Made by a program: the position numbers and the translations under genes. Positions 13,475-26,353 of a stretch of DNA of 64,000 nt are shown here, piece after piece (within the stretch, counting starts at the first letter, position 1; each line of letters begins with the position of its first letter). A model generated the notes under the pieces. It was not told where the DNA came from. It did no database searches and saw only the letters and a list, made by a program, of their open reading frames with translations. The stretch is from Microbacterium oleivorans (GTDB taxonomy: Bacteria > Actinomycetota > Actinomycetes > Actinomycetales > Microbacteriaceae): positions 1,798,001 through 1,862,000 of the forward strand of contig NZ_CP058316.1 in NCBI RefSeq assembly GCF_013389665.1, written 5' to 3'.

Positions 13475-14797
13475 TCACTCCTGGGCGTAGATGGCCTGCC
13501 GCATCGTCGCCGTCGCGCTGTGGGCCGCCATGCCCTCGGAGTCCGAGATGACCTGCACGGCGTCGGCGAGCTCGGGGGTCGCCGCGCGGCTGATGCGCTG
13601 GTATGTCAGCGGCTTGACGAAGCGCGACACCGAGAGCCCGGCGCTGTGCTTGGCACCGCCGGCGGTCGGGAGCACGTGGTTCGTCCCGGCCATCCCCTTA
13701 TCGGAGTAGGCCACCGTGCTCCACGGTCCGAGGAAGATCGAGCCGTAGTTGCGCAGCCGGTCGTGATACCAGGCGTCGTCGGTCGAGATGACCTCGAGGT
13801 GCTCGGGCGCGAGGTCGTCCATCAGGGCCGCGGCGGTCTCGCGATCGGCCGCGACCGTGACCGATCCGTAGTCCCGCCACGCGGGACCGGCGATGGGCTC
13901 GGTGGCGAGGCCCGCGAGCTGCCGGTCGACCGCGGCGATCACGGCGCGGCCGTGTTCCTCGGAGGTGGTCACGAGGGCGGCGGGCGAGTTCGGCCCGTGC
14001 TCGGCCTGACCCAGCAGGTCGGCGGCGACGATCTCGGGATCGGCGCTCTCGTCGGAGATCACCGCGACCTCCGACGGCCCGGCGAGCAGGTCGATGGCGA
14101 CCGTTCCGAAGAGCTGGCGCTTGGCCTCGGCGACGTAGGCGTTGCCGGCCCCGACGAGCATGTCGACGGGAAGGTCTCCCAGCAGGCCGAACGCCATCGC
14201 GGCGAGGGCCTGGACTCCGCCGAGCACGAACACACGGTCGACGCCCGACAGGTGCGCGGCGTAGACGACCGCGTCGTTCGCGCCGCCGTCGGGCTGGGGC
14301 GGGGTGCAGGCGATCACGGTCGGGACGCCCGCGGCCTTGGCGACGCCCACGGTCATGAACGCACTCGCGGTGAGCGGGAAGCGTCCGGCCGGCAGGTACG
14401 CGCCGACCCGCGAGACCGGGATGTACCGCGCACCGGTGACGAGTCCGGGCACGAGCTCGGTCTCGAAGTCCTTCAGGTGCGAGCGCTGCTCCGCCGCGAA
14501 GGCGCGAGTACGCTCCGATCCGAGCTCGATCGCGGCGCGGAGGTCGGCGGGCAGCCGGTCGCCGCTGGTGGCGATCTGCTCCGCGGACAGCTCGATGTCG
14601 CCGCCGGCGTAGCGGTCGAGCGAGCGGGCGTAGTCGAGCACGGCGTCGATGCCACGGCTCTGGATGTCGGAGAGCATGGCCGAGACGGTCGCGATCACCG
14701 CCGGATCCCGCTGCGCCGCCGGGGCGTCGATCAGCGGGGTCTTCAGGTGGTGGAAGGAACCGTCGAGGCGCTCGAGCAGCGCAGGAGTGAATCGCAT
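13475..14797 (-). CDS. HisD-family dehydrogenase (sulfopropanediol dehydrogenase-like), paralogue 1
   Basis: The 440-residue protein belongs to the HisD family: zinc- and NAD-dependent oxidation of a primary alcohol through the aldehyde to the acid. Visible residues are zinc ligands Q264, H267, D366 and H426, the catalytic pair E332-H333 in APEHLEV, and GNAYVAEAKRQLFG. There are no histidine genes nearby. The sequence style (VSRVGAYLPAGRFPLTASAF, GTNHVLPTAGGAKHSAGLSVSRF) resembles the HpsN branch that oxidises 2,3-dihydroxypropanesulfonate. The true substrate is unknown. It is transcribed divergently from a LysR gene that probably controls it. A homologue lies at 19238. Confidence 0.85.
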   Translation of the reverse strand: MRFTPALLERLDGSFHHLKTPLIDAPAAQRDPAVIATVSAMLSDIQSRGIDAVLDYARSLDRYAGGDIELSAEQIATSGDRLPADLRAAIELGSERTRAFAAEQRSHLKDFETELVPGLVTGARYIPVSRVGAYLPAGRFPLTASAFMTVGVAKAAGVPTVIACTPPQPDGGANDAVVYAAHLSGVDRVFVLGGVQALAAMAFGLLGDLPVDMLVGAGNAYVAEAKRQLFGTVAIDLLAGPSEVAVISDESADPEIVAADLLGQAEHGPNSPAALVTTSEEHGRAVIAAVDRQLAGLATEPIAGPAWRDYGSVTVAADRETAAALMDDLAPEHLEVISTDDAWYHDRLRNYGSIFLGPWSTVAYSDKGMAGTNHVLPTAGGAKHSAGLSVSRFVKPLTYQRISRAATPELADAVQVISDSEGMAAHSATATMRQAIYAQE

Positions 14798-14838: not shown

Positions 14839-14869
14839 TGGTCACGATGCTTTCCATAGGCTTTACCAT
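14839..14869. promoter_or_regulatory. LysR/HisD divergent control region
   Basis: The 78-nt gap between the HisD-like and LysR genes holds TACCAT (14864-14869), six bases before the LysR GTG, with GTCACG at 14841-14846 as a weak -35. ATGG at 14839 and CCAT at 14855 flank 12 bases and could be a LysR-type dyad. Low certainty. Confidence 0.35.
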
Positions 14870-14875
14870 TGGCTC

Positions 14876-15802
14876 GTGACGCTCACCCAGTTGAAGGCCT
14901 TCCTCGCCGCCCTCGAGTGCGGCTCGTTCACCGCCGCGGCGGTCGAGCTCGCGACGACGCAGGCCTCGGTGTCGGAGCTCGTCGCCCGGCTCGAGCGCGA
15001 GTTGGGGGTGCGCCTGTTCACCCGCGGCGGTCGCCGACTCGCCCCCACCGAGGCGGCCGTGGCGCTGCGCGGGCACGCCGAGCAGGCCGTGTCGGCGATC
15101 GACAACGGCGTCGAGACCATGCGGGCACTGCACGCCCTCGAGGGCGGCACCTGCACCTTCGGCGTGCTGCGCAACGCTGCGTACTACGACCTCTCCGACC
15201 TCGTGCAGCGCTTCCACGAGCGGCATCCGCGGGTGAAGGTGCGCCTGGTGGGCATCAACTCGGCCCTCGTGGCCCGATCGATCGCCGCCGGTGAGATCGA
15301 GGCCGGGCTGCTCGTGCTCCCGGTCGACGAGGACGGCCTGCGGATCACCCCGCTCTTCCGCGACGAGGTGCTGTACGCCACCGCGCGCCCAGACGGACCG
15401 GCGGAGCCGGTCTCGATCGGGCAGGTGTGCGACGCCAAGCTCGTCCTCTACGACGCCTACGCCGGCTCACAGGACCCGACGCGGCGACAGCTGCTCGAGC
15501 GGGCGCGCCTGGAGGGGCGGGTGATCGACCCGGCGATCGAGGTGGAGAACGTCGAGACGGCCCTCGGCCTGGTCGCATCGGGCGCCGCCGACACCGTGGT
15601 CTCGCGCACCATCGCCGAATCGGCGTCGTTCCCCGCCGGCATCCGGGTCGTGCCCTTCGCCGAACCGCTCTACGACACCATCGCTCTCGCGCAGCGGGAG
15701 GGCGCGTACCTGTCTCCGGCGGCTCGGCGCCTGGCCGAGCTGGCCGAGCGGATGCTGCGCGCACGGATCGCCGTGCACCCGGGGCGCACGGCGATCGAGT
15801 GA
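14876..15802 (+). CDS. LysR-family transcriptional regulator
   Basis: The 308-residue protein has the N-terminal LysR helix-turn-helix (TLTQLKAFLAALECGSFTAAAVELATTQASVSELVARLERELGVRLF). A periplasmic-binding-protein-like effector domain follows from about residue 90 (GTCTFGVLRNAAYY, VLYATARPDG, ALGLVASGAADTVVSRTIAE). It presumably activates or represses the divergent HisD-like gene in response to a substrate or intermediate. GTG 14876 is chosen because it gives the standard LysR N-terminus and follows TACCAT by six bases (leaderless). The longer upstream frame is antisense to the HisD gene. Confidence 0.92.
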   Translation: MTLTQLKAFLAALECGSFTAAAVELATTQASVSELVARLERELGVRLFTRGGRRLAPTEAAVALRGHAEQAVSAIDNGVETMRALHALEGGTCTFGVLRNAAYYDLSDLVQRFHERHPRVKVRLVGINSALVARSIAAGEIEAGLLVLPVDEDGLRITPLFRDEVLYATARPDGPAEPVSIGQVCDAKLVLYDAYAGSQDPTRRQLLERARLEGRVIDPAIEVENVETALGLVASGAADTVVSRTIAESASFPAGIRVVPFAEPLYDTIALAQREGAYLSPAARRLAELAERMLRARIAVHPGRTAIE

Positions 15803-15815
15803 TGTCCGCGAATCC

Positions 15816-16982
15816 TCAGTCGTCCTCCGTCGCGGTGACCATGACGCCCACGGGGGCGAGGTAGCCGTTGGGGTCGATCATCCAGTCGGCGTCGCGCGCG
15901 GCGTCGACGACCTCGGGTGCCCACTCCAAGTAGACCCGGTCGTCGCCGGAGTTGATCACGAGGAGCTCGCCGGCCCCGGACTCCCCCGCGTCGATGCAGC
16001 GGAACGCGCGCCAGGCCCCCGCCGGAACCGAGAACGAGTCGGAGGGATCGAGTTCGACCGTCGTGGCGGGGTCGCCGTTGAGGGTCACCGCCCACCGCCC
16101 GCTCTTGACGAGGAGCGCCTGGTTCTTGTCGTGGCGGTGGCGCAGGATGCCCTCGTCCTCGGCGGCGCGCACCCACGCCATGTTGAACGAGTGCGGCTCG
16201 TGGATGCGCGGCACCTGCCGGCGGTCCTCGGTCATGCCGTAGCCGATCGCCAGGCTGAGCTCGGCGGCGCCGCCGGGCAGGCTCGCGCACAGCAGGGCGT
16301 TCGCACTGTAGACGCGGTCGCCCGGCTGGATGACGCGGCCGCGCATGTCCTCGACCGAGTAGGTGGTGAGCTCGTCGACGTACTTCTGCTGGATCGGCTT
16401 GATCAGCGCGACGTCGTCGGGCAGCACATCGCCCGCGACGGTGTCGATCAGCTGGTTGTCGGCCGTGAGGTGCAGACCGTACGACTCCGCCTCCTTCAGC
16501 ACGGAGGGGCCCCAGATGATGCCGCCCGTCACGTCGCGGCCGAGCACGGTCCAGAGGATGCCGTCATCGGGCCCCTCGTTGGTGAACCCGCGGAAGATCC
16601 ACGTGGGGATCGAGATGATGTCGCCGTCGGTGCTGACGTACTCGCCCTGTTTGCCGTCGATGCCCCATCGGAGACGGAACTCACCGCCGAGGTTGACGAA
16701 GACCTCGGCGGTGAAGTGCAGGTGCAGGTTGTTGGAGATGCCGTTGGGCATACCCGCGGCGCCGGTGTTGAAGCCGTGCTCCTCGGTCAGGTTGATGACC
16801 TGGCCGGCGTTCTGCGACACGCCGCCGCCGATGAACGCGTAGTTCTCCTTGCGGTCCGAACCGGGCGTCCGGCAGTCGATGAACGCGGCGTTGTGCGGCG
16901 CCCAGTCGCTCTTGCGGATGGTCCGGCGGTCGATCTCGGCCCCGTCGACGACGGTGTCGTGGCTCAGTCGATCGGTACTCAT
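15816..16982 (-). CDS. bicupin protein, unknown function
   Basis: The 388-residue protein has two cupin domains. The first carries a perfect cupin-1 motif, G-x5-HLHFTAE-x6-G (around residues 78-99), so it should bind a metal. The second has HRHDKNQALLVKSG, where Q takes the place of the usual Glu ligand. The overall plan resembles quercetinase-like or homogentisate-type bicupins, but I cannot assign a reaction. A dioxygenase, isomerase or lyase are all possible. GGAGGAAG lies about 12 nt before ATG 16982. It follows the double-SnoaL gene by 22 nt in the same operon, under the LacI-type operator at 18042. Confidence 0.75.
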   Translation of the reverse strand: MSTDRLSHDTVVDGAEIDRRTIRKSDWAPHNAAFIDCRTPGSDRKENYAFIGGGVSQNAGQVINLTEEHGFNTGAAGMPNGISNNLHLHFTAEVFVNLGGEFRLRWGIDGKQGEYVSTDGDIISIPTWIFRGFTNEGPDDGILWTVLGRDVTGGIIWGPSVLKEAESYGLHLTADNQLIDTVAGDVLPDDVALIKPIQQKYVDELTTYSVEDMRGRVIQPGDRVYSANALLCASLPGGAAELSLAIGYGMTEDRRQVPRIHEPHSFNMAWVRAAEDEGILRHRHDKNQALLVKSGRWAVTLNGDPATTVELDPSDSFSVPAGAWRAFRCIDAGESGAGELLVINSGDDRVYLEWAPEVVDAARDADWMIDPNGYLAPVGVMVTATEDD

Positions 16983-17004: not shown

Positions 17005-17985
17005 TCAGTAGATGTTTCCGGGTCCGATGGGCTCGTCTCCGCGCATGCCCGCGATCTGGGCGCGCAGGGCGATGTCGTCCCACAGGCGCACTTCCTTGAC
17101 CAGGGCTCCCTGGTGGAACGTGAACTGCGAGATGCCGAGCACGTCGACCGGCTTGCCGGTGAGCGGCCCGTAGTTCGGGACGCCGTTGTAGGCGCCGACG
17201 AACTTCCAGGTGACCGCGACCCGCAAGCCCGCGTAGCGGACGTCGTAGTTGGTCTGGATGTCGCGGATCTCGAACTGCCCGGCCGGGAACGACTCGAGGA
17301 AGCGCAGCAGCGCCCGTCGGTAGCCCTCGGGCCGGATGACGATGCGGTTGCCGACGGTCAGCAGCACCAGGTCGCGGTGGAAGAACCTTTCGACCTTCTG
17401 CAGGTCGCGGTCGTTCCACACCGTCTGGATCATCTCGATGACCCGCTCGACCTCGGGGCGGTGGTCGTCGGGACGCGGACCGGAGTCGCCGACGGCGATC
17501 GGGTCGACGGGCGCCGGCTCGGTCCACGAGCCGGTGTAGCCGCGGAAGGCCGAGACGCGGGCGAGCTCGTCGAGGTCGACGCCCAGCGCGAGCGCGCCGG
17601 CGAGCGAGTCGCGCACCACCCATTCCTCGACCATGCGTCCCCGACGGTAGAGGCAGTTCGCGATCGTGCGGCTATGCTCCGAGGTCTGCAGGTGGCCCGA
17701 GAGCACGAGGTGCGAGCTGAGGAAGGCTTCGTCCCCACGCGCCTCCCAGATCACGTCCTCGGCCTGGCCGGTGCGGTCAGGGGTCGCCGAAATGCGCATG
17801 AGGGTTCCCTCGATCACCTCGTCGCGCGTGATCGAGGTGCCGTAGGCGCCGTGCACGATCGAGTCGGGCTCGTAGTTCTCGCGGATGAAGCTGATCGACC
17901 GATCCACCCAGATGAGGTCGGTCACCTCCCGGATGAAGTCGTCGGGATCCGCATACGGCTGGTAGGCGACCGGGTCGAGAGGCAC
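17005..17985 (-). CDS. double SnoaL/NTF2-fold protein
   Basis: The 326-residue protein contains two NTF2-like halves. The N-terminal half has FIREVTDLIWVDRSISFIREN, GHLQTSEHSRTIANCLYRRG and RMVEEWVVRD. The C-terminal half has VERVIEMIQTVWNDRDLQKVERFFHRD, FEIRDIQTNYDVRYAGLRVAVTW and HQGALVKEVRLWDDI. Each half would form a small cone-shaped pocket, so it is a likely cyclase, isomerase or dehydratase-type enzyme with an internal duplication. Start GTG 17985 is preferred over an upstream ATG because AAGGAG lies seven bases before it. It heads a two-gene operon with the bicupin. A LacI-type operator lies between the -35 and -10 of its promoter. Confidence 0.75.
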   Translation of the reverse strand: MPLDPVAYQPYADPDDFIREVTDLIWVDRSISFIRENYEPDSIVHGAYGTSITRDEVIEGTLMRISATPDRTGQAEDVIWEARGDEAFLSSHLVLSGHLQTSEHSRTIANCLYRRGRMVEEWVVRDSLAGALALGVDLDELARVSAFRGYTGSWTEPAPVDPIAVGDSGPRPDDHRPEVERVIEMIQTVWNDRDLQKVERFFHRDLVLLTVGNRIVIRPEGYRRALLRFLESFPAGQFEIRDIQTNYDVRYAGLRVAVTWKFVGAYNGVPNYGPLTGKPVDVLGISQFTFHQGALVKEVRLWDDIALRAQIAGMRGDEPIGPGNIY

Positions 17986-18039
17986 TCGGGGCTCCTTAGG
18001 GATGTCGGCGCCGAAGCCGGCGCGGCGTCTGATGCTCGC

Positions 18040-18069
18040 AGTGTATGCGTATGCACAACCACGATGCAA
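18040..18069 (-). promoter_or_regulatory. promoter with LacI-type operator (site a) for SnoaL/cupin operon
   Basis: On the minus strand TTGCAT (18069-18064) and TACACT (18045-18040) are 18 nt apart. Between them sits TGTGCATACGCATACA (18057-18042). Its first 12 bases, TGTGCATACGCA, are identical to the site upstream of the second HisD gene. Repressor binding here would block RNA polymerase directly. Confidence 0.65.
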
Positions 18070-18126
18070 GAGGCGAGGCGGAAGGCGACGACCGCGCGGG
18101 CGTCGCCCGCCGTCGCGACGTGGGCG

Positions 18127-19125
18127 TCAGCGGACGCGCGGCGAGGCGAGGGTGCGACGCTCGACGAAGGTCGTCTCGAACTCCACGTGCGCGTAGTCGA
18201 CCGGCCGCTCCTCGATGCGCTCCACCATCAGGCGGCCGGCCTCCCGCGCCATGCGGACGTAGTCGTAGGCGATCGTCGACAGCTGGATGATGGGCCACGA
18301 CGCGGGCGGGAGGTCGTCGAACCCGATGATCGAGATATCCTCGGGCACGGCGGCGCCCATCCGGCGCGCGGCGTTGAGGGCGCCGTAGGCGACGACGTCG
18401 TTGCCGCAGAAGATGAGCGAGGGTGGCTCAGTCAGGGCGAGGAGCTCGGACGTCGCGGTGTCGCCCGTCTCGGTGTCGAACGGACCGCGGCGGACGTAGT
18501 CGGGGTCCAGCCCGAGACCCCGGGTGCGCAGCGCCGAGCGGAGTGCGAGCTCGCGCGACTGACCGGTGCTCGTGTTCTCGGGCCCGAGAACCGCACCGAT
18601 GCGCTCGTGGCCGATCTCGAGCGCCCGGTCCACCGCGGCCTGGAAGCCCGGCGATGGAGCGACCACCGTCGCGTCGGCGTCGACGTACGCCGCCGTGCGG
18701 TTGAAGTACACGAACGGGAGGCCGCGATCGCGCAGGCGGAGCGGCACGACGGAGTCCACCGTGGTCGTGGCCAGGATGACGCCGTCGAGCCCGTTGGCGA
18801 TGAGGCGCTCGGCGACGGACTCGTCGGTCGTCTCGGTGTGCAGCACCAGCTGATAGCCGCGCGCCTCGAGCTCGCGGTGCAACGGCGCGATGATGTGCGA
18901 GTAGAACTGGTTGCCGAGGTCGGTGACGAGCAGACCGATGCGCCGCGTCCGCCCCGATGAGAGCGCCCGCCCCGCCTCGCTCGGCACATAGCCGAGCAGC
19001 GCGGCGGCTTCGCGCACGCGCTTCTTGGTCTCGTCGGACACCCGGGGGTCGTCACGGAGCGCGCGCGAGACGGTCGGTTGCGAGACTCCGGCGAGCCGAG
19101 CGACATCTCTGCTGGTGACAGCCAT
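18127..19125 (-). CDS. LacI-family transcriptional repressor
   Basis: The 332-residue protein has a LacI DNA-binding domain (TSRDVARLAGVSQPTVSRAL, residues 4-23) with hinge region YVPSEAGRALSSGRTRRIG. A sugar-binding-type effector domain (IGLLVTDLGNQFYSHIIAP through GFDDLPPASWPIIQLSTIAYD) follows. It is the obvious candidate to bind the five TGCATACGTATGCA-like sites in this region. It lies divergent to the HisD/SDR/aldolase operon and just upstream of the SnoaL/cupin operon. A TAGACT -10 at 19167-19162 (minus strand) places its promoter beside operator b, so autoregulation is likely. A nine-G run overlaps its ribosome binding site. Confidence 0.93.
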   Translation of the reverse strand: MAVTSRDVARLAGVSQPTVSRALRDDPRVSDETKKRVREAAALLGYVPSEAGRALSSGRTRRIGLLVTDLGNQFYSHIIAPLHRELEARGYQLVLHTETTDESVAERLIANGLDGVILATTTVDSVVPLRLRDRGLPFVYFNRTAAYVDADATVVAPSPGFQAAVDRALEIGHERIGAVLGPENTSTGQSRELALRSALRTRGLGLDPDYVRRGPFDTETGDTATSELLALTEPPSLIFCGNDVVAYGALNAARRMGAAVPEDISIIGFDDLPPASWPIIQLSTIAYDYVRMAREAGRLMVERIEERPVDYAHVEFETTFVERRTLASPRVR

Positions 19126-19128
19126 GGA

Positions 19129-19137
19129 CCCCCCCCC
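19129..19137. repeat. nine-C homopolymer over the LacI ribosome binding site
   Basis: Nine consecutive C on the plus strand read as nine G on the LacI mRNA, ending three bases before the ATG. It serves as the G-rich Shine-Dalgarno. Runs of this length are prone to slipped-strand length changes, which would shift SD spacing. Confidence 0.7.
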
Positions 19138-19175
19138 TGCAGGCTCGGCGCTACGGCTCGAAGTCTAGCGGAGAC

Positions 19176-19204
19176 TTGACGTTCTGTGCATACGCAGTCA
19201 TAGT
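19176..19204 (+). promoter_or_regulatory. promoter with LacI-type operator (site b) for HisD operon
   Basis: TTGACG (19176-19181) and CATAGT (19199-19204), with a 17-nt spacer, form the promoter. TGCATACGCAGTCA (19187-19200) occupies the spacer. The left half matches the consensus exactly; the right half is degenerate. Confidence 0.65.
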
Positions 19205-19207
19205 GGC

Positions 19208-19221
19208 AACATACGTATGCA
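19208..19221 (+). promoter_or_regulatory. LacI-type operator, site c
   Basis: AACATACGTATGCA matches 12 of 14 bases of the consensus TGCATACGTATGCA. Its centre is 21 bp from that of site b, two helical turns, so two repressor dimers could sit on the same face of the DNA. It lies just downstream of the -10, about 16 bases before the ATG at 19238. Confidence 0.7.
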
Positions 19222-19237
19222 TGGGAAGGATGCACCG

Positions 19238-20554
19238 ATGCCCCTCTACCTGAAGAATGCGCCGACGAAGTCGTTCACCGACACCGCGCAGAGCGACGTC
19301 GCCGCGCGGGTGCGCACGATCATCGACGACATCCGCGGCAACGGCGACGAGGCCGTCGCACGCTACGCGGCCCAGTTCGACCGGTGGGAGGCACCCTTCC
19401 GCCTCGACGACGACCGCATCGACGAGATCATGGCGAGCCTCGATCCGCAGGTGATCGACGACATCCGGTTCGTGCAGGATCAGGTGCGGACCTTCGCCCA
19501 GGCGCAGCGCGACTCGCTCGTCGACATCGAGGTCGAGACGCTTCCGGGCGTCCACCTCGGGCAGAAGCACGTGCCCGTCCAGGCCGCGGGCGCCTACATC
19601 CCCGGCGGCAAGTACCCGCTGACGGCATCCGCCCACATGACCATCATCACCGCGAAGGTCGCCGGCGTGCCCCGCGTGGTCGCCTGCACCCCGCCGATCC
19701 GCGGTGAGATCCCCGCCGCAACGGTCGCCGCGATGAAGCTCGCCGGTGCCGACGAGATCTACATCCTCGGTGGTATCCAGGCCGTCACGGCGATGGCCGT
19801 GGGGACCGAGACGATCGCGCCGGTCAATCTCATCGCCGGCCCCGGCAACGCCTACGTCGCCGAGGCCAAGCGCCAGCTGTTCGGCGAGGTCGGCATCGAC
19901 CTCTTCGCCGGGCCCACCGAGATCCTCATCGTCGCCGACGACGACGCCGATCCGTTCCTCACTGCCGTCGACCTGCTCTCGCAGGCCGAGCACGGTCCGG
20001 AGTCGCCGGCCGTCCTCATCACGACCTCGCGCTCTCTCGGCGAGCGCGTGATGACCCTCGTCGACGAACTCCTCCCGGGGATGTCCACGAGGGATTACGC
20101 CGAGCCGGCCTGGCGGGACTGGGGCCAGGTGATCGTCGTCGACGACCTCGACGAGGCCTACGCCCTCGCCGACACGTTCGCCTTCGAGCACGTGCAGGTC
20201 TTCACGAACGAGCCCCGCGCCGCGCTCGAGAAGATGCACGACTACGGCGCGCTCTTCCTCGGCGAGAACACCTGTGTCTCGTACGGCGACAAGGTGATCG
20301 GCACGAACCACGTGCTGCCCACCCTCGGCGCCGCCCGCTACACCGGCGGGCTCTGGGTGGGCAAGTACCTGCGGACCGTCACCTACCAGGAGATCGTCGA
20401 CCCGGCGTCGTCGGCGCTGCTGGGCGAGGTGTGCGGCCGGGCGGCGCGGGTCGAGCTGTTCGAGGGCCACGCCCGATCGGGCGATGCGCGTGCGTGGCGG
20501 CACGCCGGCACGAGCTTCCCGTGGATCGAGGAGAGCCGGGCGGGCGCGCGGTGA
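19238..20554 (+). CDS. HisD-family dehydrogenase (sulfopropanediol dehydrogenase-like), paralogue 2
   Basis: The 438-residue HisD-family enzyme is a paralogue of the gene at 13475. Zinc ligands Q249, H252, D351 and H411 and the catalytic E317-H318 (AFEHVQV) are all present, as is GNAYVAEAKRQLFGEVG. It should oxidise an alcohol group with NAD to a carboxylate in two steps. HpsN, which makes sulfolactate from dihydroxypropanesulfonate, is the closest described type I recognise. The start is ATG 19238, seven bases after GGGAAGGA, rather than the ATG 21 nt upstream that overlaps operator c. It is the first gene of a three-gene operon, and its stop overlaps the SDR start. Confidence 0.87.
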   Translation: MPLYLKNAPTKSFTDTAQSDVAARVRTIIDDIRGNGDEAVARYAAQFDRWEAPFRLDDDRIDEIMASLDPQVIDDIRFVQDQVRTFAQAQRDSLVDIEVETLPGVHLGQKHVPVQAAGAYIPGGKYPLTASAHMTIITAKVAGVPRVVACTPPIRGEIPAATVAAMKLAGADEIYILGGIQAVTAMAVGTETIAPVNLIAGPGNAYVAEAKRQLFGEVGIDLFAGPTEILIVADDDADPFLTAVDLLSQAEHGPESPAVLITTSRSLGERVMTLVDELLPGMSTRDYAEPAWRDWGQVIVVDDLDEAYALADTFAFEHVQVFTNEPRAALEKMHDYGALFLGENTCVSYGDKVIGTNHVLPTLGAARYTGGLWVGKYLRTVTYQEIVDPASSALLGEVCGRAARVELFEGHARSGDARAWRHAGTSFPWIEESRAGAR

Positions 20555-21309
20555 CCGACCTCTCCGGTCGGATCGCCCTGGTCACCGGCGGCGGGAGCGG
20601 TCTCGGCGCCGCGATCGCAGACGCCCTGCACGGCGCCGGGGCCGAGGTGGTCCTGGTCGGTCGCGACACGACACGGCTCGACGCGGTGGTCGCCCGCCTC
20701 GGCGAGCGCGCGCGGCGGGTGGCCTGCGACGTGTCGGATCCCGCTGCGGTCGAGGGCCTGCGCGACGAGCTCGCCCCCACCGAGGTGTCGATCCTCGTCA
20801 ACAATGCCGGGATCGCCGGTCCCGTCGCGGCGCTGACCGAGGTCACCGCGGCGGATTGGGACGAGGTGTTCGCGGTGAACGTTCGCGGTACCTTCCTCAT
20901 GTGTCGCGCCTTCCTCCCGGGCATGGTCGCGCGGGGAGCGGGCGATGTCATCAACGTCGCGTCGGTGTCGGGCAAGCGCCCGCTGGCGCACCGAACCCCG
21001 TACACGGCCTCGAAGATGGCCGTGCTCGGCCTGACGACCTCGCTCGCGTTCGAGGTCGGTCCTGCCGGGGTGACGGTCAACAGCCTGTCCCCGGGACCCG
21101 TGGCCGGCGACCGCATGGCCCGGAACTTCCGGCTCGAGGCCGAGCGTTCGGGCACCTCGGCCGAGAGCGCCGAGGCGGCCTTCGTCTCGCGATCGGCGCT
21201 GGGCAGGATGGTCACCGCGTCCGAGGTCGGGGCCGCCGTGGTCGCGATGCTGAACATGCCCGGTATGTGCGGCGCCGATGTCGATCTCTCGGCCGGGATG
21301 GTCGCCTGA
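20551..21309 (+). CDS. short-chain dehydrogenase/reductase (SDR)
   Basis: This is a 252-residue classical SDR. The nucleotide-binding TGGGSGLG is at 12-19, NNAG at 84-87, and the active-site S138, Y151 and K155 (YTASK) are present. It interconverts an alcohol and a ketone with NAD(P). GTG 20551 overlaps the HisD stop (GTGA), so the two are co-translated. Pairing of an SDR with an HpsN-like enzyme recalls the hpsO/hpsN pairing in dihydroxypropanesulfonate catabolism, but the aldolase downstream is not part of that pathway. The substrate therefore remains open. Confidence 0.9.
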   Translation: MTDLSGRIALVTGGGSGLGAAIADALHGAGAEVVLVGRDTTRLDAVVARLGERARRVACDVSDPAAVEGLRDELAPTEVSILVNNAGIAGPVAALTEVTAADWDEVFAVNVRGTFLMCRAFLPGMVARGAGDVINVASVSGKRPLAHRTPYTASKMAVLGLTTSLAFEVGPAGVTVNSLSPGPVAGDRMARNFRLEAERSGTSAESAEAAFVSRSALGRMVTASEVGAAVVAMLNMPGMCGADVDLSAGMVA

Positions 21310-22076
21310 TGCCCGCCCCCTCGGCTCCGCCGCGCGGGCCGTCGCTCCGGGCCCGGGCCGACGCCGGCGAGCGTCTGATCGGCGCGCTGCTGCGGATGCC
21401 GGGCGAGGAGCTCGTCGAGATGCTCGCGGTGGCGGACTTCGACTTCGTCCTCATCGACGGCGAGCACGGGCCCGCCGACATCGTGCCCCTCCGCCAGCAC
21501 ATCGCCGTCGCCGCCGCGCACGGGGTGCCCGTGATCGTCCGGGTCGGCGAGGGCGACGCCGGCATGATCCTGCGTGTGCTCGACCAGGGCGCGCAGGGGA
21601 TCCTCGCGCCGCACATCGACGACCCCGCCGGTGCCGCGGCCGTCGTCTCGGCCGCGCATTACCCGCCGGCCGGTACCCGGGGCTTCGCGACCTACAGCCG
21701 GGCCGGGAGATTCGGCGAGACGGATGCCGCGGAGCACCGCGACTGGTATCTGCAGAACACGCTCGTGCTCGGCATGATCGAGTCGCCCGCCGGCGTCGCC
21801 GCGGCCGACGGTATCGCCCGCACGCCGGGGCTCGACGGGATCATGATCGGGCCCGCCGATCTCGCCGCCTCGTCGGGTCCCGACGATCCGTCGGTGGCGG
21901 CCGCGTCCGCGCGGGTGAACCGGGCGGTCGCGGATGCCGGGCGGCTGCGCATGGACATCGTCGGAACGCCCGAGGCGGCGGCAGCAGCGTTCGCGGACGG
22001 CGCGCACCTGGTGGTCTACAACCTCGCCCACTCGCTCATGCGTCATCTGCGCGGGCTGCGCGCGGCCCGCGACTGA
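21309..22076 (+). CDS. HpcH/HpaI-type aldolase
   Basis: The 255-residue class II aldolase of the HpcH/HpaI/GarL group cleaves 2-keto-3-deoxy or 4-hydroxy-2-oxo acids to pyruvate and an aldehyde with a divalent metal. Motifs are FDFVLIDGEHGP (E52, H53), TRGFATYSRAGRFG, GMIESPAGV and GPADLAAS, which hold the metal and catalytic residues of this family. The start ATG shares one base with the SDR stop. It closes the LacI-controlled operon. Its last 41 nt overlap the 3' end of the convergent alpha/beta hydrolase gene. No dehydratase that would make a 2-keto-3-deoxy acid is found nearby. Confidence 0.88.
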   Translation: MPAPSAPPRGPSLRARADAGERLIGALLRMPGEELVEMLAVADFDFVLIDGEHGPADIVPLRQHIAVAAAHGVPVIVRVGEGDAGMILRVLDQGAQGILAPHIDDPAGAAAVVSAAHYPPAGTRGFATYSRAGRFGETDAAEHRDWYLQNTLVLGMIESPAGVAAADGIARTPGLDGIMIGPADLAASSGPDDPSVAAASARVNRAVADAGRLRMDIVGTPEAAAAAFADGAHLVVYNLAHSLMRHLRGLRAARD

Positions 22077-22752
22077 CCGCGCTCCACCACGCACGCACCG
22101 CCGCCCCGACCTCGTCCGGGCGCTCGACCGGCGACAGATGGCCGGCATCGACCGAGACCGGGATGCCGTCGGCCACCGCTGCGAGGATCTCCTCGTGGAA
22201 CGCCGGCGGGCAGAGGACGTCGTCCGAGGCCGAGAGCACGAGGGTCGGCACCCGGACACGGCGCAGTCCCTCGCGCAGGTCGACGCGCGTGCCCTGCAGG
22301 TGCAGCTGCATCGCGAGGGCGCCGGGGGCGGTCTCGGCCCCCATCCGCAGCGTCCGCTCGACCAGGTCGGGGCGCCGTGCCACGACCCCGGGGCCGAGCA
22401 GCGCGCCGAGGATCTCGGCCTGCAGGTCGCGCGGCGCGTCGCCGGCGTCGAGCCGCGCGAGCCACCTCCGCCACGACGCACGCTGCGCGTCGGTCGGCGC
22501 CTTGGCGTTGGTCGAGGCGACGAACAGCCCGCTCACCCGCTCGGGCGCTCGCACGGCGAGCGCCATCGCCACGATCCCACCGAGCGACAGGCCGCCGATG
22601 GCGAAGACCGGAGGCAGTTCGTCCAGCAGCCGCTCGACCTGACGACCCAGATCGTCCTCGGTCAGCTCGGGCGTCCGCGCATCGTCGACGCCGCATCCCG
22701 TCCACAGGTCCGCCGTGCAGTTCATCCCCGGGAGCAGGACGAGCGGGGTCAC
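22036..22752 (-). CDS. alpha/beta hydrolase
   Basis: The 238-residue alpha/beta hydrolase has nucleophile elbow GLSLGG (S56), an acid residue in SASDDVLCPP and a catalytic His in VDAGHLSPVERPDEV. The oxyanion region is LLPGMNC. It could be an esterase or lactonase. Start GTG 22752 follows the permease stop by one base, so it is the last gene of the ABC importer operon and is expected to act on the imported substrate. The frame is convergent with, and overlaps, the aldolase gene. Confidence 0.85.
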   Translation of the reverse strand: MTPLVLLPGMNCTADLWTGCGVDDARTPELTEDDLGRQVERLLDELPPVFAIGGLSLGGIVAMALAVRAPERVSGLFVASTNAKAPTDAQRASWRRWLARLDAGDAPRDLQAEILGALLGPGVVARRPDLVERTLRMGAETAPGALAMQLHLQGTRVDLREGLRRVRVPTLVLSASDDVLCPPAFHEEILAAVADGIPVSVDAGHLSPVERPDEVGAAVRAWWSAVSRGPRAARADDA

Positions 22753-22753
22753 G

Positions 22754-23656
22754 TCAGCCCTTCACCGCCCCGTCGCTGAGCCCGGCCACGAGGTACTTCT
22801 GCGCGATGAACGCGATTACCACCACGGGGATCGTCAGCAGCATCGACGCCGCTCCCGCCTGCTGCAGCATCGGGAGCGTCTGTCCGAGCTGCGTGGCGAT
22901 GAACACGGGCACCGTCTTCGACGACGAGTCGGTCAGCACCAGCGCCGTGAGGTACTCCTGGAAGGCGAAGAGGAAGACGAAGATCCCCGCGGTGAGGATG
23001 CCCGGCCCCATGAGCGGGATCATCACGCGACGCAGCATCCCGATGCGGGTGCAGCCGTCGATCATCGCGGCCTCGTCGAGCTCACGAGGGATCTCGGCGA
23101 AGAAGTTGCGCAGCAGCCAGATCGTGAAGGGCTGGTTGATCGCGACGAGCGCGATCGCCAGGGCGAACGTGGTGTCGTAGATGCCGAGCGCCCGACTGAT
23201 GTCGTACATCGGGAGCACGACCGCGAACCGCGGCAGCGCGCGGAAGATGAGGGCGAGCACCAGGAGCAGCGCCGACACGTAGCTGGGGAAGCGGGACAGC
23301 GCGTAGGCGGCGGGGATCCCGATGATCAGGGCGATGACGGTCGAGACGACGGCCACCACCACGGTGTTGACGAGATAGTCGGCGAAGTAGGTGGTCTGCC
23401 ACAGGTCGACGAAGGCCTGCACCGTGGGCTGGTAGTCCCACAGCACCGGCGGGTTGGCGAACGCGACGTTCGTCGGCTTGGTCACCGACAGCGTCATCCA
23501 GATGAACGGGCTGAGCATCACGACGCACAGGATCGCGAGCAGGATGCCGGTGATCACGGGCGGCCGGCCGAGCCGGCGTCGACGTGCGCGCCCGGTGCCC
23601 TCGATGTCGCCGGTGGTGATGGCGCGTGTGGAGAGGTCGCCGCTGGTGAGCGTCAT
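22754..23656 (-). CDS. sugar-type ABC permease (MalG family)
   Basis: The 300-residue permease has a long charged N-terminus, then about six helices (VITGILLAILCVVMLSPFIWM, TVVVAVVSTVIALIIGIPAAY, LLLVLALIFRALPRFAVVLP). The EAA loop is ELDEAAMIDGCTRIGMLRRVMIPLMGPG, typical of MalG-type carbohydrate importers. It pairs with the MalF-type permease whose gene overlaps it by 4 nt (ATGA at 23653-23656). The operon has no ATPase, so a shared MsiK/UgpC-type ATPase encoded elsewhere must drive it. Confidence 0.92.
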   Translation of the reverse strand: MTLTSGDLSTRAITTGDIEGTGRARRRRLGRPPVITGILLAILCVVMLSPFIWMTLSVTKPTNVAFANPPVLWDYQPTVQAFVDLWQTTYFADYLVNTVVVAVVSTVIALIIGIPAAYALSRFPSYVSALLLVLALIFRALPRFAVVLPMYDISRALGIYDTTFALAIALVAINQPFTIWLLRNFFAEIPRELDEAAMIDGCTRIGMLRRVMIPLMGPGILTAGIFVFLFAFQEYLTALVLTDSSSKTVPVFIATQLGQTLPMLQQAGAASMLLTIPVVVIAFIAQKYLVAGLSDGAVKG

Positions 23657-24525
23657 CGTTCCGCCCTCGCTTCCTGGAAGATGCCGCGGATGAAGGGGAT
23701 GAGCATGACGAGGATGAGGAGGATCGTCAGCACGTTGATGGCGCTGCCGAGTCCGAGGTTCTGCGCCCCGTCGGCGAAGGCCACCGAGTACACGTAGAGC
23801 ATGATCGACTCGTTGCCGATCGCCTGCGCCTGTGGCGAGAGGGGGATGAGGTTGTCGAACATCCGCAGCACGTCCATGATCGAGATGAGCGTGACGAACC
23901 CGATGACCCCGCGGATCGTGGGGATGATGACGTTGAGGTGGGTCTGCACCGCGTTGGCGCCGTCGATCGTCGCCGCCTCGCGCAGCTCGACCGGAACGCC
24001 CTGGAGCCCGGCGAGGATGATGAGCATCGCGAACGGGAGCATGTGCCAGACGGTGTTGGAGATGACCAGCACGGCGTTGGGAACCTGGTCGGTGAACCAG
24101 AGCACCTGCGATCCGCCCAGCAGGCCGATGAACCGGTTGACGACACCGCCGAAGTTGTCGTCGAAGAGCCACGAGTAGGCCACGGCGCCGACCAGGTTGG
24201 GCAGGACGTACGACACGAGCATGATGCCCAGCACGAGGGGGCGCGAAGTCGTCAGGCGGTTCACGCCGGTGGCGATGAGGTAGCCGAGCACGAGCAGGAT
24301 GGTCGTCGTGATGACGGTCACCACGATCGTGAACAGCGCGGCCCGGCCGAAGCGTGCGTCGGTGAGCGCGTCGACGAAGTTCGCCAGGCCGACGAACGTG
24401 CCCGGCGTTCCGTAGCGGACGCTTTCGAAGCTCCACTGGATGGTTCGGATGAGCGGCACGACCAGCAGGCCGGCCATGATGACGAAGCTCGGTGCGAACA
24501 GCAGCCAGAACTCGCGTGCCTTCAT
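23653..24525 (-). CDS. sugar-type ABC permease (MalF family)
   Basis: The 290-residue permease shows six helices starting with FWLLFAPSFVIMAGLLVVPLIRTIQWSFESV, characteristic of UgpA/MalF-like proteins. Its EAA loop is ELREAATIDGANAVQTHLNVIIPTIRG. It forms the heterodimeric channel with the MalG-type partner. A 92-nt spacer with a 12-bp GC-rich hairpin separates it from the binding-protein gene upstream, which probably lets the binding protein be made in excess. Confidence 0.92.
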   Translation of the reverse strand: MKAREFWLLFAPSFVIMAGLLVVPLIRTIQWSFESVRYGTPGTFVGLANFVDALTDARFGRAALFTIVVTVITTTILLVLGYLIATGVNRLTTSRPLVLGIMLVSYVLPNLVGAVAYSWLFDDNFGGVVNRFIGLLGGSQVLWFTDQVPNAVLVISNTVWHMLPFAMLIILAGLQGVPVELREAATIDGANAVQTHLNVIIPTIRGVIGFVTLISIMDVLRMFDNLIPLSPQAQAIGNESIMLYVYSVAFADGAQNLGLGSAINVLTILLILVMLIPFIRGIFQEARAER

Positions 24526-24547
24526 ATCGGGAACTCCCCTCGATCGG

Positions 24548-24577
24548 CCGCGGCCTGGACCTGGATCCAGGCCGCGG
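24548..24577 (-). other. intercistronic hairpin after the binding-protein gene
   Basis: CCGCGGCCTGGA (24548-24559) and TCCAGGCCGCGG (24566-24577) are a perfect 12-bp inverted repeat around a 6-nt loop, 40 nt past the binding-protein stop. It has no U tract. Such stems commonly protect the upstream message from 3' decay or attenuate read-through into the permeases. Confidence 0.65.
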
Positions 24578-24617
24578 TCATCGATGTGTCAGTGCGGTTC
24601 GGTGCGGTGGAGGTGCG

Positions 24618-25925
24618 TCAGCCGACGAAGGCCTCGCCCGCCGCCTGCATCTGGGCCATGCCGTCCTCGACCGAGACGTTGCCCGACAGCACCTGGACGA
24701 GGATCGGACGGATCTCGTTGGTCAGGTCGGCGAGGATGGGCGAGACCACGGGCGGCATCGCCGCGGCGATCGAGTCGTTGGCCGCCTCGCCGTAGGGCGA
24801 GTTCTCTGCCGTGACCATGCCCTCGCGAGCCGGGTAGGCCGCGGGCACCGAGGCGGTCGACGCATCCTCGCTGACGGCGGAGGCCATCATGACGAAGAGC
24901 ATGTCGTGGTCGAGCTTGGTGTTGAACGGGATGGACCAGCCGTCGATCGACAGGCGGTTGTAGGCGTACTCGGCATCGTCGCTGAGCTTGGGCGGGGCGG
25001 CGAAGGCGAACGACTCGGCGAGGTTGCTGTTGGTGTCGAGGGTGAGGTCGTTCATACGGCCCGAGAACATGATCGACATCGCCGCGGTGCCGTTGTACAT
25101 CTGCTGCTGCACCTTGGGCTGGTCGAAGGTCGTGACCTGCGGGTCCATGTAGGGGACGAGGGCCAGCATCCCCTCGAGCGCCTGCTGCGCCTCGGGGGTG
25201 TCGAGGGTGACCTCGCCGGACTCGTCCACGAAGTCCGCGCCGAGGGAGTTCATCGCGGCCTGGAAGCTCGTGGAGACGTCGGATGTCGCGAGCCACGGCA
25301 GGGCGATGGGGTAGGCCATGGTGCCCTCGGCCTGGATCGCCTCGGCGGCGGCGATCATCTCGTCGAACGTGGTGGGGACCTCGAGTCCGAGGTCCTCGAA
25401 GACGTCCGCGCGGTAGGCCATGACGAACATCTGCGCCTGCATCGGCAGGGCGTAGAGCTTGCCGTCGTACGACATGCCGGTGCGCATGGACTCGCTGATC
25501 TCGTTGAGGCCGTACTCGTCGGCGTACTTGTCGAACAGGTCGTCCAGCGGAACCAGCTTCTCGTCGGTGGCGAGCCCCGGGATGACGAAGCCGTAGGTCT
25601 CGACGATGTCGTAGGTGCCCGTGTCGCCCGCGAGCGTTGCGGTGGTCTTGGTCACCTGCCCGCCGAAGTCGATCGGGTCGTGCTTGACGGTGACATCGTC
25701 CTTCGAGCAGCTCGACACCATGGTGTTGGTGAACGGATCGATGGCGGAGGAGTTGTAGGCGAGCACGTTGACCGTGGTCGCCGAATCGGGTGCGGTGTAG
25801 TCGCACGTGACCTCGGTGGCATTCGCGTTCCCCGTGCGGCTGCCGGCGCCGCATCCGGTGAGGGCGAGTGCACCCACGGCCGCCGCGGCGACAAGGGCGA
25901 AAGCGCGCTTCTGAGTGGATGACAT
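24618..25925 (-). CDS. extracellular solute-binding lipoprotein (SBP_bac_1)
   Basis: The 435-residue lipoprotein has signal FALVAAAAVGALALTGCGAG with the lipidated Cys near residue 25. The rest is a family-1 (sugar-type) binding protein, with TVNVLAYNSS, YDIVETYGFVIPGLATDEKLVPLD, MSYDGKLYALPMQAQMFVMAYRADVFEDLGL and YNRLSIDGWSIPFN. The ligand is unknown. ATG 25925 is taken as start; a GTG two codons upstream is possible. No clear Shine-Dalgarno is present. Operator d ends four bases upstream of the GTG, so repressor binding would also block the start of the message. Confidence 0.9.
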   Translation of the reverse strand: MSSTQKRAFALVAAAAVGALALTGCGAGSRTGNANATEVTCDYTAPDSATTVNVLAYNSSAIDPFTNTMVSSCSKDDVTVKHDPIDFGGQVTKTTATLAGDTGTYDIVETYGFVIPGLATDEKLVPLDDLFDKYADEYGLNEISESMRTGMSYDGKLYALPMQAQMFVMAYRADVFEDLGLEVPTTFDEMIAAAEAIQAEGTMAYPIALPWLATSDVSTSFQAAMNSLGADFVDESGEVTLDTPEAQQALEGMLALVPYMDPQVTTFDQPKVQQQMYNGTAAMSIMFSGRMNDLTLDTNSNLAESFAFAAPPKLSDDAEYAYNRLSIDGWSIPFNTKLDHDMLFVMMASAVSEDASTASVPAAYPAREGMVTAENSPYGEAANDSIAAAMPPVVSPILADLTNEIRPILVQVLSGNVSVEDGMAQMQAAGEAFVG

Positions 25926-25933
25926 GGGCACAC

Positions 25934-25947
25934 CGTATACGTATGCA
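25934..25947 (-). promoter_or_regulatory. LacI-type operator, site d
   Basis: CGTATACGTATGCA matches 12 of 14 bases of the consensus TGCATACGTATGCA and has the perfect core TATACGTAT. It lies immediately upstream of the importer binding-protein gene. Confidence 0.7.
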
Positions 25948-26000
25948 TAGCGGTAAGGGAAGACTTACCAGCCAGCACGGTCGGTAACGATCGCGTTTCG

Positions 26001-26014
26001 TGAATACGTATAAG
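26001..26014 (-). promoter_or_regulatory. LacI-type operator, site e
   Basis: TGAATACGTATAAG keeps the palindromic core ATACGTAT and matches 10 of 14 consensus bases. Its centre is 67 bp upstream of site d, a distance that would allow a repression loop. It sits just past the 3' end of the chorismate mutase gene. Confidence 0.55.
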
Positions 26015-26032
26015 TGTTACGGCCGGCGCAGA

Positions 26033-26353
26033 TCAGTCGGCCGCGCGCTCAGGGGCGTCTTCCGACACGTCCTCGGCGGCGATGCGGTGGTGGCGGATGA
26101 CCTCGGCGACGACGAACCCGAACCACTTCTGCGCGAACTCGGGGTCGAGGTCGGCTTCCTCCGCGAGCCGGCGCAGGCGTGCGATCTGGCGCTCCTCGCG
26201 ACCGGGGTCGGATGCCGGCATGCCGTGCTCGGCCTTGAGCTCACCGACCTGCTTGGTGCAACGGAATCGCTCCGCGAGCATGAAGACGAGCGCGGCGTCG
26301 ATGTTGTCGATGCTCGCGCGCAGGCGCTGGAGTTGTGTCGTGGCGTCGGTCAT
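26033..26353 (-). CDS. chorismate mutase, AroQ type
   Basis: The 106-residue all-helical AroQ-type chorismate mutase converts chorismate to prephenate for phenylalanine and tyrosine. The long first helix LRASIDNIDAALVFMLAERF is followed by a CTKQVGELKAEHGMPASDPGREERQIARLR segment with the conserved Lys/Asp/Arg pattern. The end of the protein is VVAEVIRHHR. It is a stand-alone domain with no signal peptide, hence cytoplasmic and not the secreted type. It is divergent from the AI-2E-type permease and precedes the LacI-controlled importer, with no functional link apparent. Confidence 0.9.
   Translation of the reverse strand: MTDATTQLQRLRASIDNIDAALVFMLAERFRCTKQVGELKAEHGMPASDPGREERQIARLRRLAEEADLDPEFAQKWFGFVVAEVIRHHRIAAEDVSEDAPERAAD

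What the first reader, a model, noticed from the sequence alone, without database searches (positions are those of the whole stretch)
18040..26014. Five matching LacI-type operators define a three-operon regulon
Sites at 18042-18055 (minus), 19187-19200, 19208-19221, 25934-25947 and 26001-26014 share consensus TGCATACGTATGCA (10 to 12 of 14 matches each, all with ATACGYA). Sites a and b share TGTGCATACGCA exactly. They flank the promoters of SnoaL/cupin, HisD/SDR/aldolase and the ABC importer/hydrolase, and the LacI gene is divergent at the centre. Two pairs have 21-bp and 67-bp spacing, suited to cooperative binding or looping. This is the strongest evidence that these genes form one system.
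Basis: partly seen in the sequence, partly recalled or inferred. Interest (0 to 1): 0.75.

Follow-up and report, generated by a model that had tools for sequence, protein, structure and literature searches.

The report
Conserved sugar-type repressor regulon, substrate unknown
Five matching DNA switches very probably tie a set of uptake and breakdown genes to one neighbouring LacI-family regulator in Microbacterium and some more distant actinobacteria; this is an ordinary kind of local gene control around a breakdown pathway whose substrate is not known.

Summary
The finding holds. All five sites are present as described (12, 11, 12, 12 and 10 of 14). In the window's 3.35 Mb single-contig genome the shared core TGMATACGYA occurs exactly five times, all at these sites. 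In 32 related loci, a site of at least 11/14 lies within 120 nt upstream of SnoaL in 32 of 32, HisD in 32 of 32 and the ABC binding protein in 27 of 27 testable; the other 614 kb of those loci hold two. Among 149 genomes of the genus, core matches average 6.3 with this lacI gene and 1.8 without. Sites b and c lie on a good promoter; a and d overlap likely -10 elements, read by eye. Best reading: a dimeric LacI-family repressor blocks three promoters and probably its own, released by an unknown ligand. The 21-bp pair is close to a published spacing for cooperative dimers; looping over 67 bp is not favoured. In six distant relatives a second HisD-like gene also carries the operator; in the window its relative (13475-14797) lies beside a LysR gene without one. 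Both HisD-like enzymes lack the published His motif of DHPS dehydrogenases and branch apart from histidine-synthesis HisD. New member of a known kind.

The parts
18042..18055 (-). Operator a, TGCATACGCATACA; its last 4 bases form part of the likely -10 (TACACT, 18045-18040) of the SnoaL-cupin operon; likely -35 TTGCAT 18069-18064
   Evidence: identical in 31 of 32 named relatives, L061 differs by one base; promoter read by eye, coordinates checked, not picked by the promoter scan
19176..19204 (+). Promoter of the HisD operon, TTGACG-17-CATAGT
   Evidence: Only promoter-like site in 17950-26100, 9 of 12; shuffles mean 0.5; TTGAC present in 33 of 33 upstream regions
19187..19200 (+). Operator b, in the -35/-10 spacer of the HisD promoter, overlapping the -10 by two bases
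   Evidence: present in 26 of 33 rows (25 plus L038, where a chance match hid it; L038 seen); absent in L054, L057, L059, L060, L061, L063, L066
19208..19221 (+). Operator c, starting 4 nt after the HisD -10, over the expected transcription start
   Evidence: a site of at least 11/14 upstream of HisD in 32 of 32 named relatives
25934..25947 (-). Operator d, with 8 nt between it and the SBP start codon; overlaps a likely -10 (TATACG, 25939-25934)
   Evidence: a site of at least 11/14 upstream of SBP in 27 of 27 testable named relatives; -10 read by eye
26001..26014 (+). Operator e, 67 bp upstream of d, the weakest (10/14)
   Evidence: two sites, 66-68 or 55 bp apart, in 22 of 28 rows with SBP upstream sequence, window included; one site in the other 6
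18127..19125 (-). LacI-family regulator, 332 aa, HTH core GVSQPTVSRAL, hinge RALSSG
   Evidence: Pfam PF00356 and PF13377; HTH core the same in 54 of 54 rows, which include the window and 13 genomes held twice
17005..17984 (-). SnoaL-like protein (GTG start)
   Evidence: Pfam PF07366 over residues 180-310; start chosen by eye from an upstream AAGGAG
15816..16982 (-). Cupin protein, 388 aa, likely bicupin
   Evidence: Cupin_2, two stretches; weak Foldseek matches to bicupins such as quercetinase and oxalate decarboxylase, model pLDDT 63.6
19238..20554 (+). HisD-like dehydrogenase 1
   Evidence: PF00815; PDB best match HpsN 374 bits against 260 for the best HisD; motif GKYPL, no His126 equivalent
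20551..21309 (+). Short-chain dehydrogenase
   Evidence: PF00106
21309..22076 (+). HpcH/HpaI-type aldolase
   Evidence: PF03328
22036..22752 (-). Alpha/beta hydrolase, PcaD-like but below the PcaD cut-off
22754..23656 (-). ABC permease 2
   Evidence: Below the cut-offs of named permeases but related to many
23653..24525 (-). Probable ABC permease 1
   Evidence: ORF, conserved neighbour; not scanned against families
24618..25925 (-). Extracellular sugar-type solute-binding protein
   Evidence: PF01547
13475..14797 (-). HisD-like dehydrogenase 2: no LacI operator here, but one in six distant relatives
14876..15802 (+). LysR-family regulator next to HisD-like 2
   Evidence: PF00126, PF03466; box AATGGTAAA (window 14862-14870, minus) in 24 of 25 intergenic regions

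Best explanation
A local LacI-family regulon. A dimer of the 332-aa LacI-type protein (18127-19125) binds an even palindrome with a CG centre, TGCATACGTATGCA, at five places. Bound at a it covers the likely -10 of SnoaL-cupin; at b and c it sits side by side, two helical turns apart, over the spacer and start point of the HisD-SDR-aldolase promoter; at d it covers the likely -10 of the ABC importer-hydrolase operon, with e as an auxiliary upstream site. RNA polymerase is thus kept off all three promoters. b and c also lie in front of lacI, so the gene probably controls itself. A small molecule, probably an imported sugar-like compound or an early breakdown product, releases the repressor. Shown: the sites, their confinement, their conservation and, for b and c, their position on a promoter. 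Inferred: the promoters at a and d, binding by this protein, repression rather than activation, the inducer, autoregulation and the pathway.
For: Exact core confined to the five sites in the whole genome, 5 of 5. Site of at least 11/14 upstream of SnoaL 32/32, HisD 32/32, SBP 27/27, against LysR 0/24, cupin 0/32, permease 1 0/29, aldolase 0/31, SDR 0/31 and HisD-like 2 1/28 (a cross-hit); 116 sites in 9.7 kb against 2 in 614 kb. Core count per genome 6.27 in 22 lacI-positive (own genome included) against 1.83 in 127 lacI-negative genomes, p = 2e-12; reversed control 2.9 against 2.2, p = 0.07. HTH core unchanged in 54 of 54 rows. Promoter TTGACG-17-CATAGT holds b and ends 4 nt before c. b-c spacing 21 bp in 25 and 22 bp in 1 of the 26 rows that have b; published LacI-family pairs peak at 13, 22 and 32 bp, and even palindromes with a central CG pair are the family norm (PMC4052901, passages and section 9).
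Against: No binding or expression data. Operator b is missing in 7 of 33 rows, all outside Microbacterium-like loci, and the d-e pair is a single site in 6 of 28, so neither pair is obligatory. The -10 elements at a and d are by eye; the scan found only the HisD promoter. With up to 3 mismatches the motif is not enriched genome-wide over its reversed control, 12 against 21 places. Most control regions are coding. The genus comparison shows association with the whole locus, not with lacI alone. In the Lumbricidophila genome (G155) only 1 of 9 core matches lies on the locus contig, since its operators vary. L034, the most diverged LacI of the genus set, shows one site in its 4 kb.
Confidence: 0.9

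Rival explanations
1. The five sites belong to a different regulator encoded elsewhere (another LacI paralogue or a global regulator), and the neighbouring lacI controls something else.
For: LacI paralogues are common in such genomes (general knowledge); some lacI-negative genomes hold several core matches, for example G043 with 8, though its reversed control has 7.
Against: The core is confined to this locus in its own genome and core counts follow this lacI gene. A lacI match lies in 32 of 32 named loci. In 6 of 7 distant genomes 2-4 of the 2-9 core matches lie on the locus contig; in the seventh, G155, 1 of 9.
Confidence: 0.05
2. The protein acts as an activator, or as a looping tetramer like E. 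coli LacI, rather than as a simple dimeric road-block.
For: Two paired-site promoters, with an upstream site e at 66-68 or 55 bp, two classes about one helical turn apart.
Against: Sites b and c lie on core promoter elements, and a and d probably do, which suits repression. The protein aligns to LacI residues 4-332 of 360 and ends there, without the C-terminal tetramerisation helix (role of the helix recalled).
Confidence: 0.12
3. The similarity of the sites is chance or a local repeat family without function.
For: With up to 3 mismatches the genome has 12 places against 21 for the reversed control.
Against: Conservation of position and sequence through distant genomes titled Arthrobacter, Specibacter, Microlunatus, Pseudonocardia and Propionibacteriaceae MAGs, amid otherwise diverged intergenic DNA.
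Confidence: 0.01
4. The regulon serves DHPS (sulfopropanediol) breakdown, its HisD-like enzymes being HpsN.
For: HpsN is the closest solved relative of both, 374 bits each, against 260 and 248 for the best HisD.
Against: The published HpsN motif G-R-Y-A/S-H with sulfonate-binding His126 (PMC11382572, passages) is GKYPL and GRFPL here. None of the genes scanned was matched to a sulfolactate lyase family; SuyAB was not searched for elsewhere in the genome.
Confidence: 0.05

Closest known systems
Local LacI-family regulons described by comparative genomics (Ravcheev et al. 2014, PMC4052901; passages and section 9 seen)
   Same: Even palindrome with CG centre, sites near the start codons of clustered catabolic and transport genes, tandem sites about 22 bp apart, likely autoregulation
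   Different: The pathway is not one named in the passages seen (the rest was not read); c and d have only 16 and 8 nt between site and start codon, closer than the 30-140 bp where over 75% of their sites lie
PurR, CcpA and RbsR-type LacI-family proteins
   Same: Domain order and length; full-length PDB matches with PurR and RbsR
   Different: Scores below the NCBIfam cut-offs of all 17 families listed, for example CytR 185.5 of 436 bits
E. coli LacI
   Same: HTH and sensor domains align
   Different: No C-terminal tetramerisation region (recalled)
HpsN, DHPS-3-dehydrogenase
   Same: Closest solved relative of both HisD-like proteins
   Different: Lacks the His126 motif

Membership tests
LacI-family transcription factor | N-terminal LacI HTH plus periplasmic-binding-like sensor domain | tested here: met
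   PF00356 60.4 bits against cut-off 27; PF13377 100.4 against 26.5
LacI-family local regulon | Even palindromic motif with central CG, upstream of clustered genes, conserved in orthologous loci | tested here: met
   family norm
LacI-family local regulon | The regulator binds the motif and responds to a pathway ligand | not testable with these tools
   Needs gel shift and expression work
Looping LacI tetramer | C-terminal tetramerisation helix | tested here: not met
   Alignment ends at LacI residue 332 of 360, query residue 329 of 332; position of the helix recalled
Named NCBIfam LacI equivalogs (CytR, RbsR, PurR, GntR and others) | Score above the curated cut-off | tested here: not met
   0 of 17 listed families pass
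HpsN (DHPS-3-dehydrogenase) | G-R-Y-A/S-H motif with sulfonate-binding His | tested here: not met
   GKYPL (19238-20554) and GRFPL (13475-14797), alignment
Histidinol dehydrogenase (HisD, histidine synthesis) | Score above the TIGR00069 cut-off | tested here: met
   419.5 and 433.6 bits against 243.8; this model also takes in HisD-like relatives, so it does not settle function
Histidinol dehydrogenase (HisD, histidine synthesis) | Groups with the third, presumed histidine-synthesis copy of the same genomes | tested here: not met
   Both form clades apart from those copies (21 of 24 proteins in the tree, midpoint-rooted)

The most novel reading that the evidence does not exclude
The regulon controls an undescribed catabolic pathway that uses two different HisD-like four-electron dehydrogenases (neither histidinol nor DHPS dehydrogenases) with an HpcH-type aldolase, a bicupin and a SnoaL-like protein. 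In Microbacterium one of these two genes has passed from LacI control, where the operator holds the predicted start codon in 6 of 6 distant relatives tested, to control by a neighbouring LysR-type regulator with its own conserved box.
Probability: 0.45. Interest if true: 0.5.

Novelty: new member of a known kind. Interest (0 to 1): 0.3.

Why it matters
It makes the inducer and substrate of an uncharacterised pathway directly testable: one repressor, one short operator, three promoters and one binding protein. It also ties two HisD-like clades, which score above the cut-off of the histidinol dehydrogenase model, to a catabolic regulon, which warns against that annotation. The split of the regulon between LacI and a possible LysR control in Microbacterium is a small, checkable case of regulatory rewiring.

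Tried and rejected
Looping by a LacI tetramer: considered and not favoured. DHPS breakdown: rejected on the His126 motif. Histidinol dehydrogenase of histidine synthesis: rejected on the tree, although both proteins pass the TIGR00069 cut-off. Structure prediction of the SnoaL-like protein gave pLDDT 53.2 and was not searched; the cupin model (63.6) gave only weak bicupin matches, most TM-scores near 0.3, not used for function. The box between e and d was scanned in the genome: 14 distinct places with up to 3 mismatches, fewer than the reversed control (64), no pattern recognised. Literature: searches (at least 4 of Microbacterium, histidinol dehydrogenase, SnoaL, LacI, gene cluster; histidinol dehydrogenase, LacI, Microbacterium and catabolism, all four) found no paper; one search listed only the HpsN paper and an unrelated fungal genome. 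Only these searches were made on the pathway. The class-wide search for the cupin found it in 5 of 394 genomes, own genome included.

Counts and drops: the named set is 32 loci from one scan with the cupin protein, so it is conditioned on the cupin. SBP upstream sequence was testable in 27 of 32 (not in L048, L060, L061, L064, L065). The HisD tree holds 21 of 24 proteins; three histidine-type copies were lost by my extraction filter. In one search the single HisD-like-2 site of at least 11/14 is, a cross-hit of the query onto HisD in L060. The b-c tally lists one row at 31 bp where the 21-bp site is also present (L036). In one search L038 counted as lacking b because a chance match lay nearer the start; one search shows its b at 21 bp from c.
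Full report
Observation. Against TGCATACGTATGCA they score 12 (a), 11 (b), 12 (c), 12 (d) and 10 (e) of 14, and each holds ATACGYA. In the window only 6 positions reach 10/14, five of them these. The search with up to 3 mismatches gives 4 against 0.50 expected from shuffles.

Genome-wide test. The window is bases 1798001-1862000 of a single 3,350,353-base contig. With up to 2 mismatches there are 3 places, all here; with up to 3 there are 12, of which 4 are here, and the reversed pattern has 21. The core TGMATACGYA, which covers all five sites, occurs 5 times, all at the five sites; the reversed control occurs 6 times. As that core was made from the sites, this shows confinement, not independent discovery.

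Conservation. One scan of named genomes with the cupin protein gave 32 loci, and a search of 149 genomes of the genus with LacI gave 22 at E up to 1e-60, own genome included. The gene order SBP-permease-permease-hydrolase / aldolase-SDR-HisD / LacI-SnoaL-cupin is kept in most loci. Exceptions are loci cut by contig or locus ends, L048 (no transporter genes within the locus), L034 (LacI beside permeases) and L060 (transporter genes further off). In the 32 named loci a site of 11/14 or better lies within 120 nt upstream of SnoaL in 32 of 32, HisD in 32 of 32 and SBP in 27 of 27; upstream of LysR 0 of 24, cupin 0 of 32, permease 1 0 of 29, aldolase 0 of 31, SDR 0 of 31, and HisD-like 2 1 of 28, the last a cross-hit. 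In all, 116 sites fall in 9,737 upstream positions and 2 in the other 614,058. Site a is identical in 31 of 32. Of the 8 genus loci not in the named set, 7 show sites a, b and c. In the genus, 22 lacI-positive genomes hold on average 6.27 core matches against 1.83 in 127 negative ones (Mann-Whitney p = 2e-12), while the reversed control gives 2.9 against 2.2, p = 0.07. The HTH core GVSQPTVSRAL is unchanged in 54 of 54 LacI rows, which stand for 41 genomes with the window's.

Promoter anatomy. The only promoter-like match in 17950-26100 is TTGACG-17-CATAGT at 19176-19204. Site b lies in its spacer and overlaps its -10 by two bases; site c begins 4 nt after it, over the expected start. TTGAC is found in 33 of 33 HisD upstream regions, 33-36 nt before the last CATACG in 32 of 33. 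By eye, site a ends inside a likely -10 (TACACT, conserved) with TTGCAT 18 nt upstream, and site d ends in TATACG, 8 nt before the SBP start codon, which suggests a leaderless message. These last two are inference. Site b is present in 26 of 33 rows, 21 bp from c in 25 and 22 bp in one; the seven without it are the records titled Arthrobacter, Specibacter, Microlunatus, Pseudonocardia, Friedmanniella and Propionibacteriaceae (two). The e-d distance is 66-68 bp in 11 and 55 bp in 11 of 28 rows, with a single site in 6. The two classes differ by about one helical turn.

Mechanism. Published LacI-family motifs are even palindromes, usually with a central CG pair; 72% of the regulators control themselves; paired sites peak at 13, 22 and 32 bp, the latter two read as cooperative dimers (PMC4052901, passages, section 9). 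The present sites fit this. Overlap with core promoter elements makes repression the likely mode. The protein aligns to E. coli LacI up to residue 332 of 360 and stops, so it lacks the region that makes LacI a tetramer (recalled); looping between d and e is therefore not favoured.

An extended regulon. In six distant relatives (records titled Arthrobacter, Specibacter, Microlunatus, Pseudonocardia and two Propionibacteriaceae MAGs) a second HisD-like gene precedes SBP and has its own operator, which contains the gene's predicted start codon in 6 of 6; the seventh, the Friedmanniella MAG, was not tested. In the window the related gene (13475-14797) lies beside a LysR gene, with no motif (best 7 of 14). 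The LysR intergenic region has another conserved box, AATGGTAAA, in 24 of 25 rows, all but L058; that LysR binds it is inference. The tree of 21 HisD-family proteins puts the two HisD-like groups apart from the third copies, presumed to be for histidine synthesis. The copies of the window's genome and of L058's genome branch outside the six others of group 2, so replacement by a diverged copy is as possible as descent with a change of regulator.

What the genes do. Both HisD-like proteins are closest in the PDB to DHPS dehydrogenase HpsN, but the paper's diagnostic G-R-Y-A/S-H, whose His binds the sulfonate (PMC11382572, passages), reads GKYPL and GRFPL here (GRYPL in two relatives of the first). 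With a sugar-type importer, an SDR, an HpcH/HpaI aldolase, a SnoaL-like protein, a cupin and an alpha/beta hydrolase, the set looks like uptake and oxidative breakdown of a sugar-like or plant-derived compound ending in aldol cleavage. This is inference, and the substrate is unknown. None of the cluster's genes that were scanned is an ATPase (permease 1 was not scanned).

Verdict. It is a new member of a well-known kind of control; its interest lies in the unassigned pathway and in the change of control over the second HisD-like gene.

Noticed in passing
window 25954-25967 (minus): Between sites e and d many relatives keep a box like TTAGGCTTCCCTAA (window TAAGTCTTCCCTTA); CTTCCCT is in 21 of 28 SBP upstream regions. 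It may be a -35 region or the site of another regulator.
   Followed up: partly
window 14862-14870 (minus): The LysR/HisD-like-2 intergenic region holds the box AATGGTAAA in 24 of 25 rows, a possible LysR site.
   Followed up: partly
L036 11101-11976; also L048, L050, L058: Between cupin and LysR 20 of 25 relatives have a gap of 828-1256 bases. The four looked at hold a similar ORF, in L036 a carbon-nitrogen hydrolase (PF00795). The window has only 13 bases there.
   Followed up: partly
L102, L103, L104, L105, L106, L107: In six distant relatives the LacI operator contains the predicted start codon of the second HisD-like gene, which suggests a leaderless message.
   Followed up: partly
   Followed up: partly
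L021 (G048:C5:136451-137446): One in-frame TGA is reported within the LacI match, with three operators still present.
   Followed up: no
window 22036-22076: The aldolase and the alpha/beta hydrolase genes overlap tail to tail by 41 bases.
   Followed up: no
window 22754-25925: The importer has two permeases and a binding protein but no ATPase gene was seen in the cluster, so it probably uses one encoded elsewhere.
   Followed up: no
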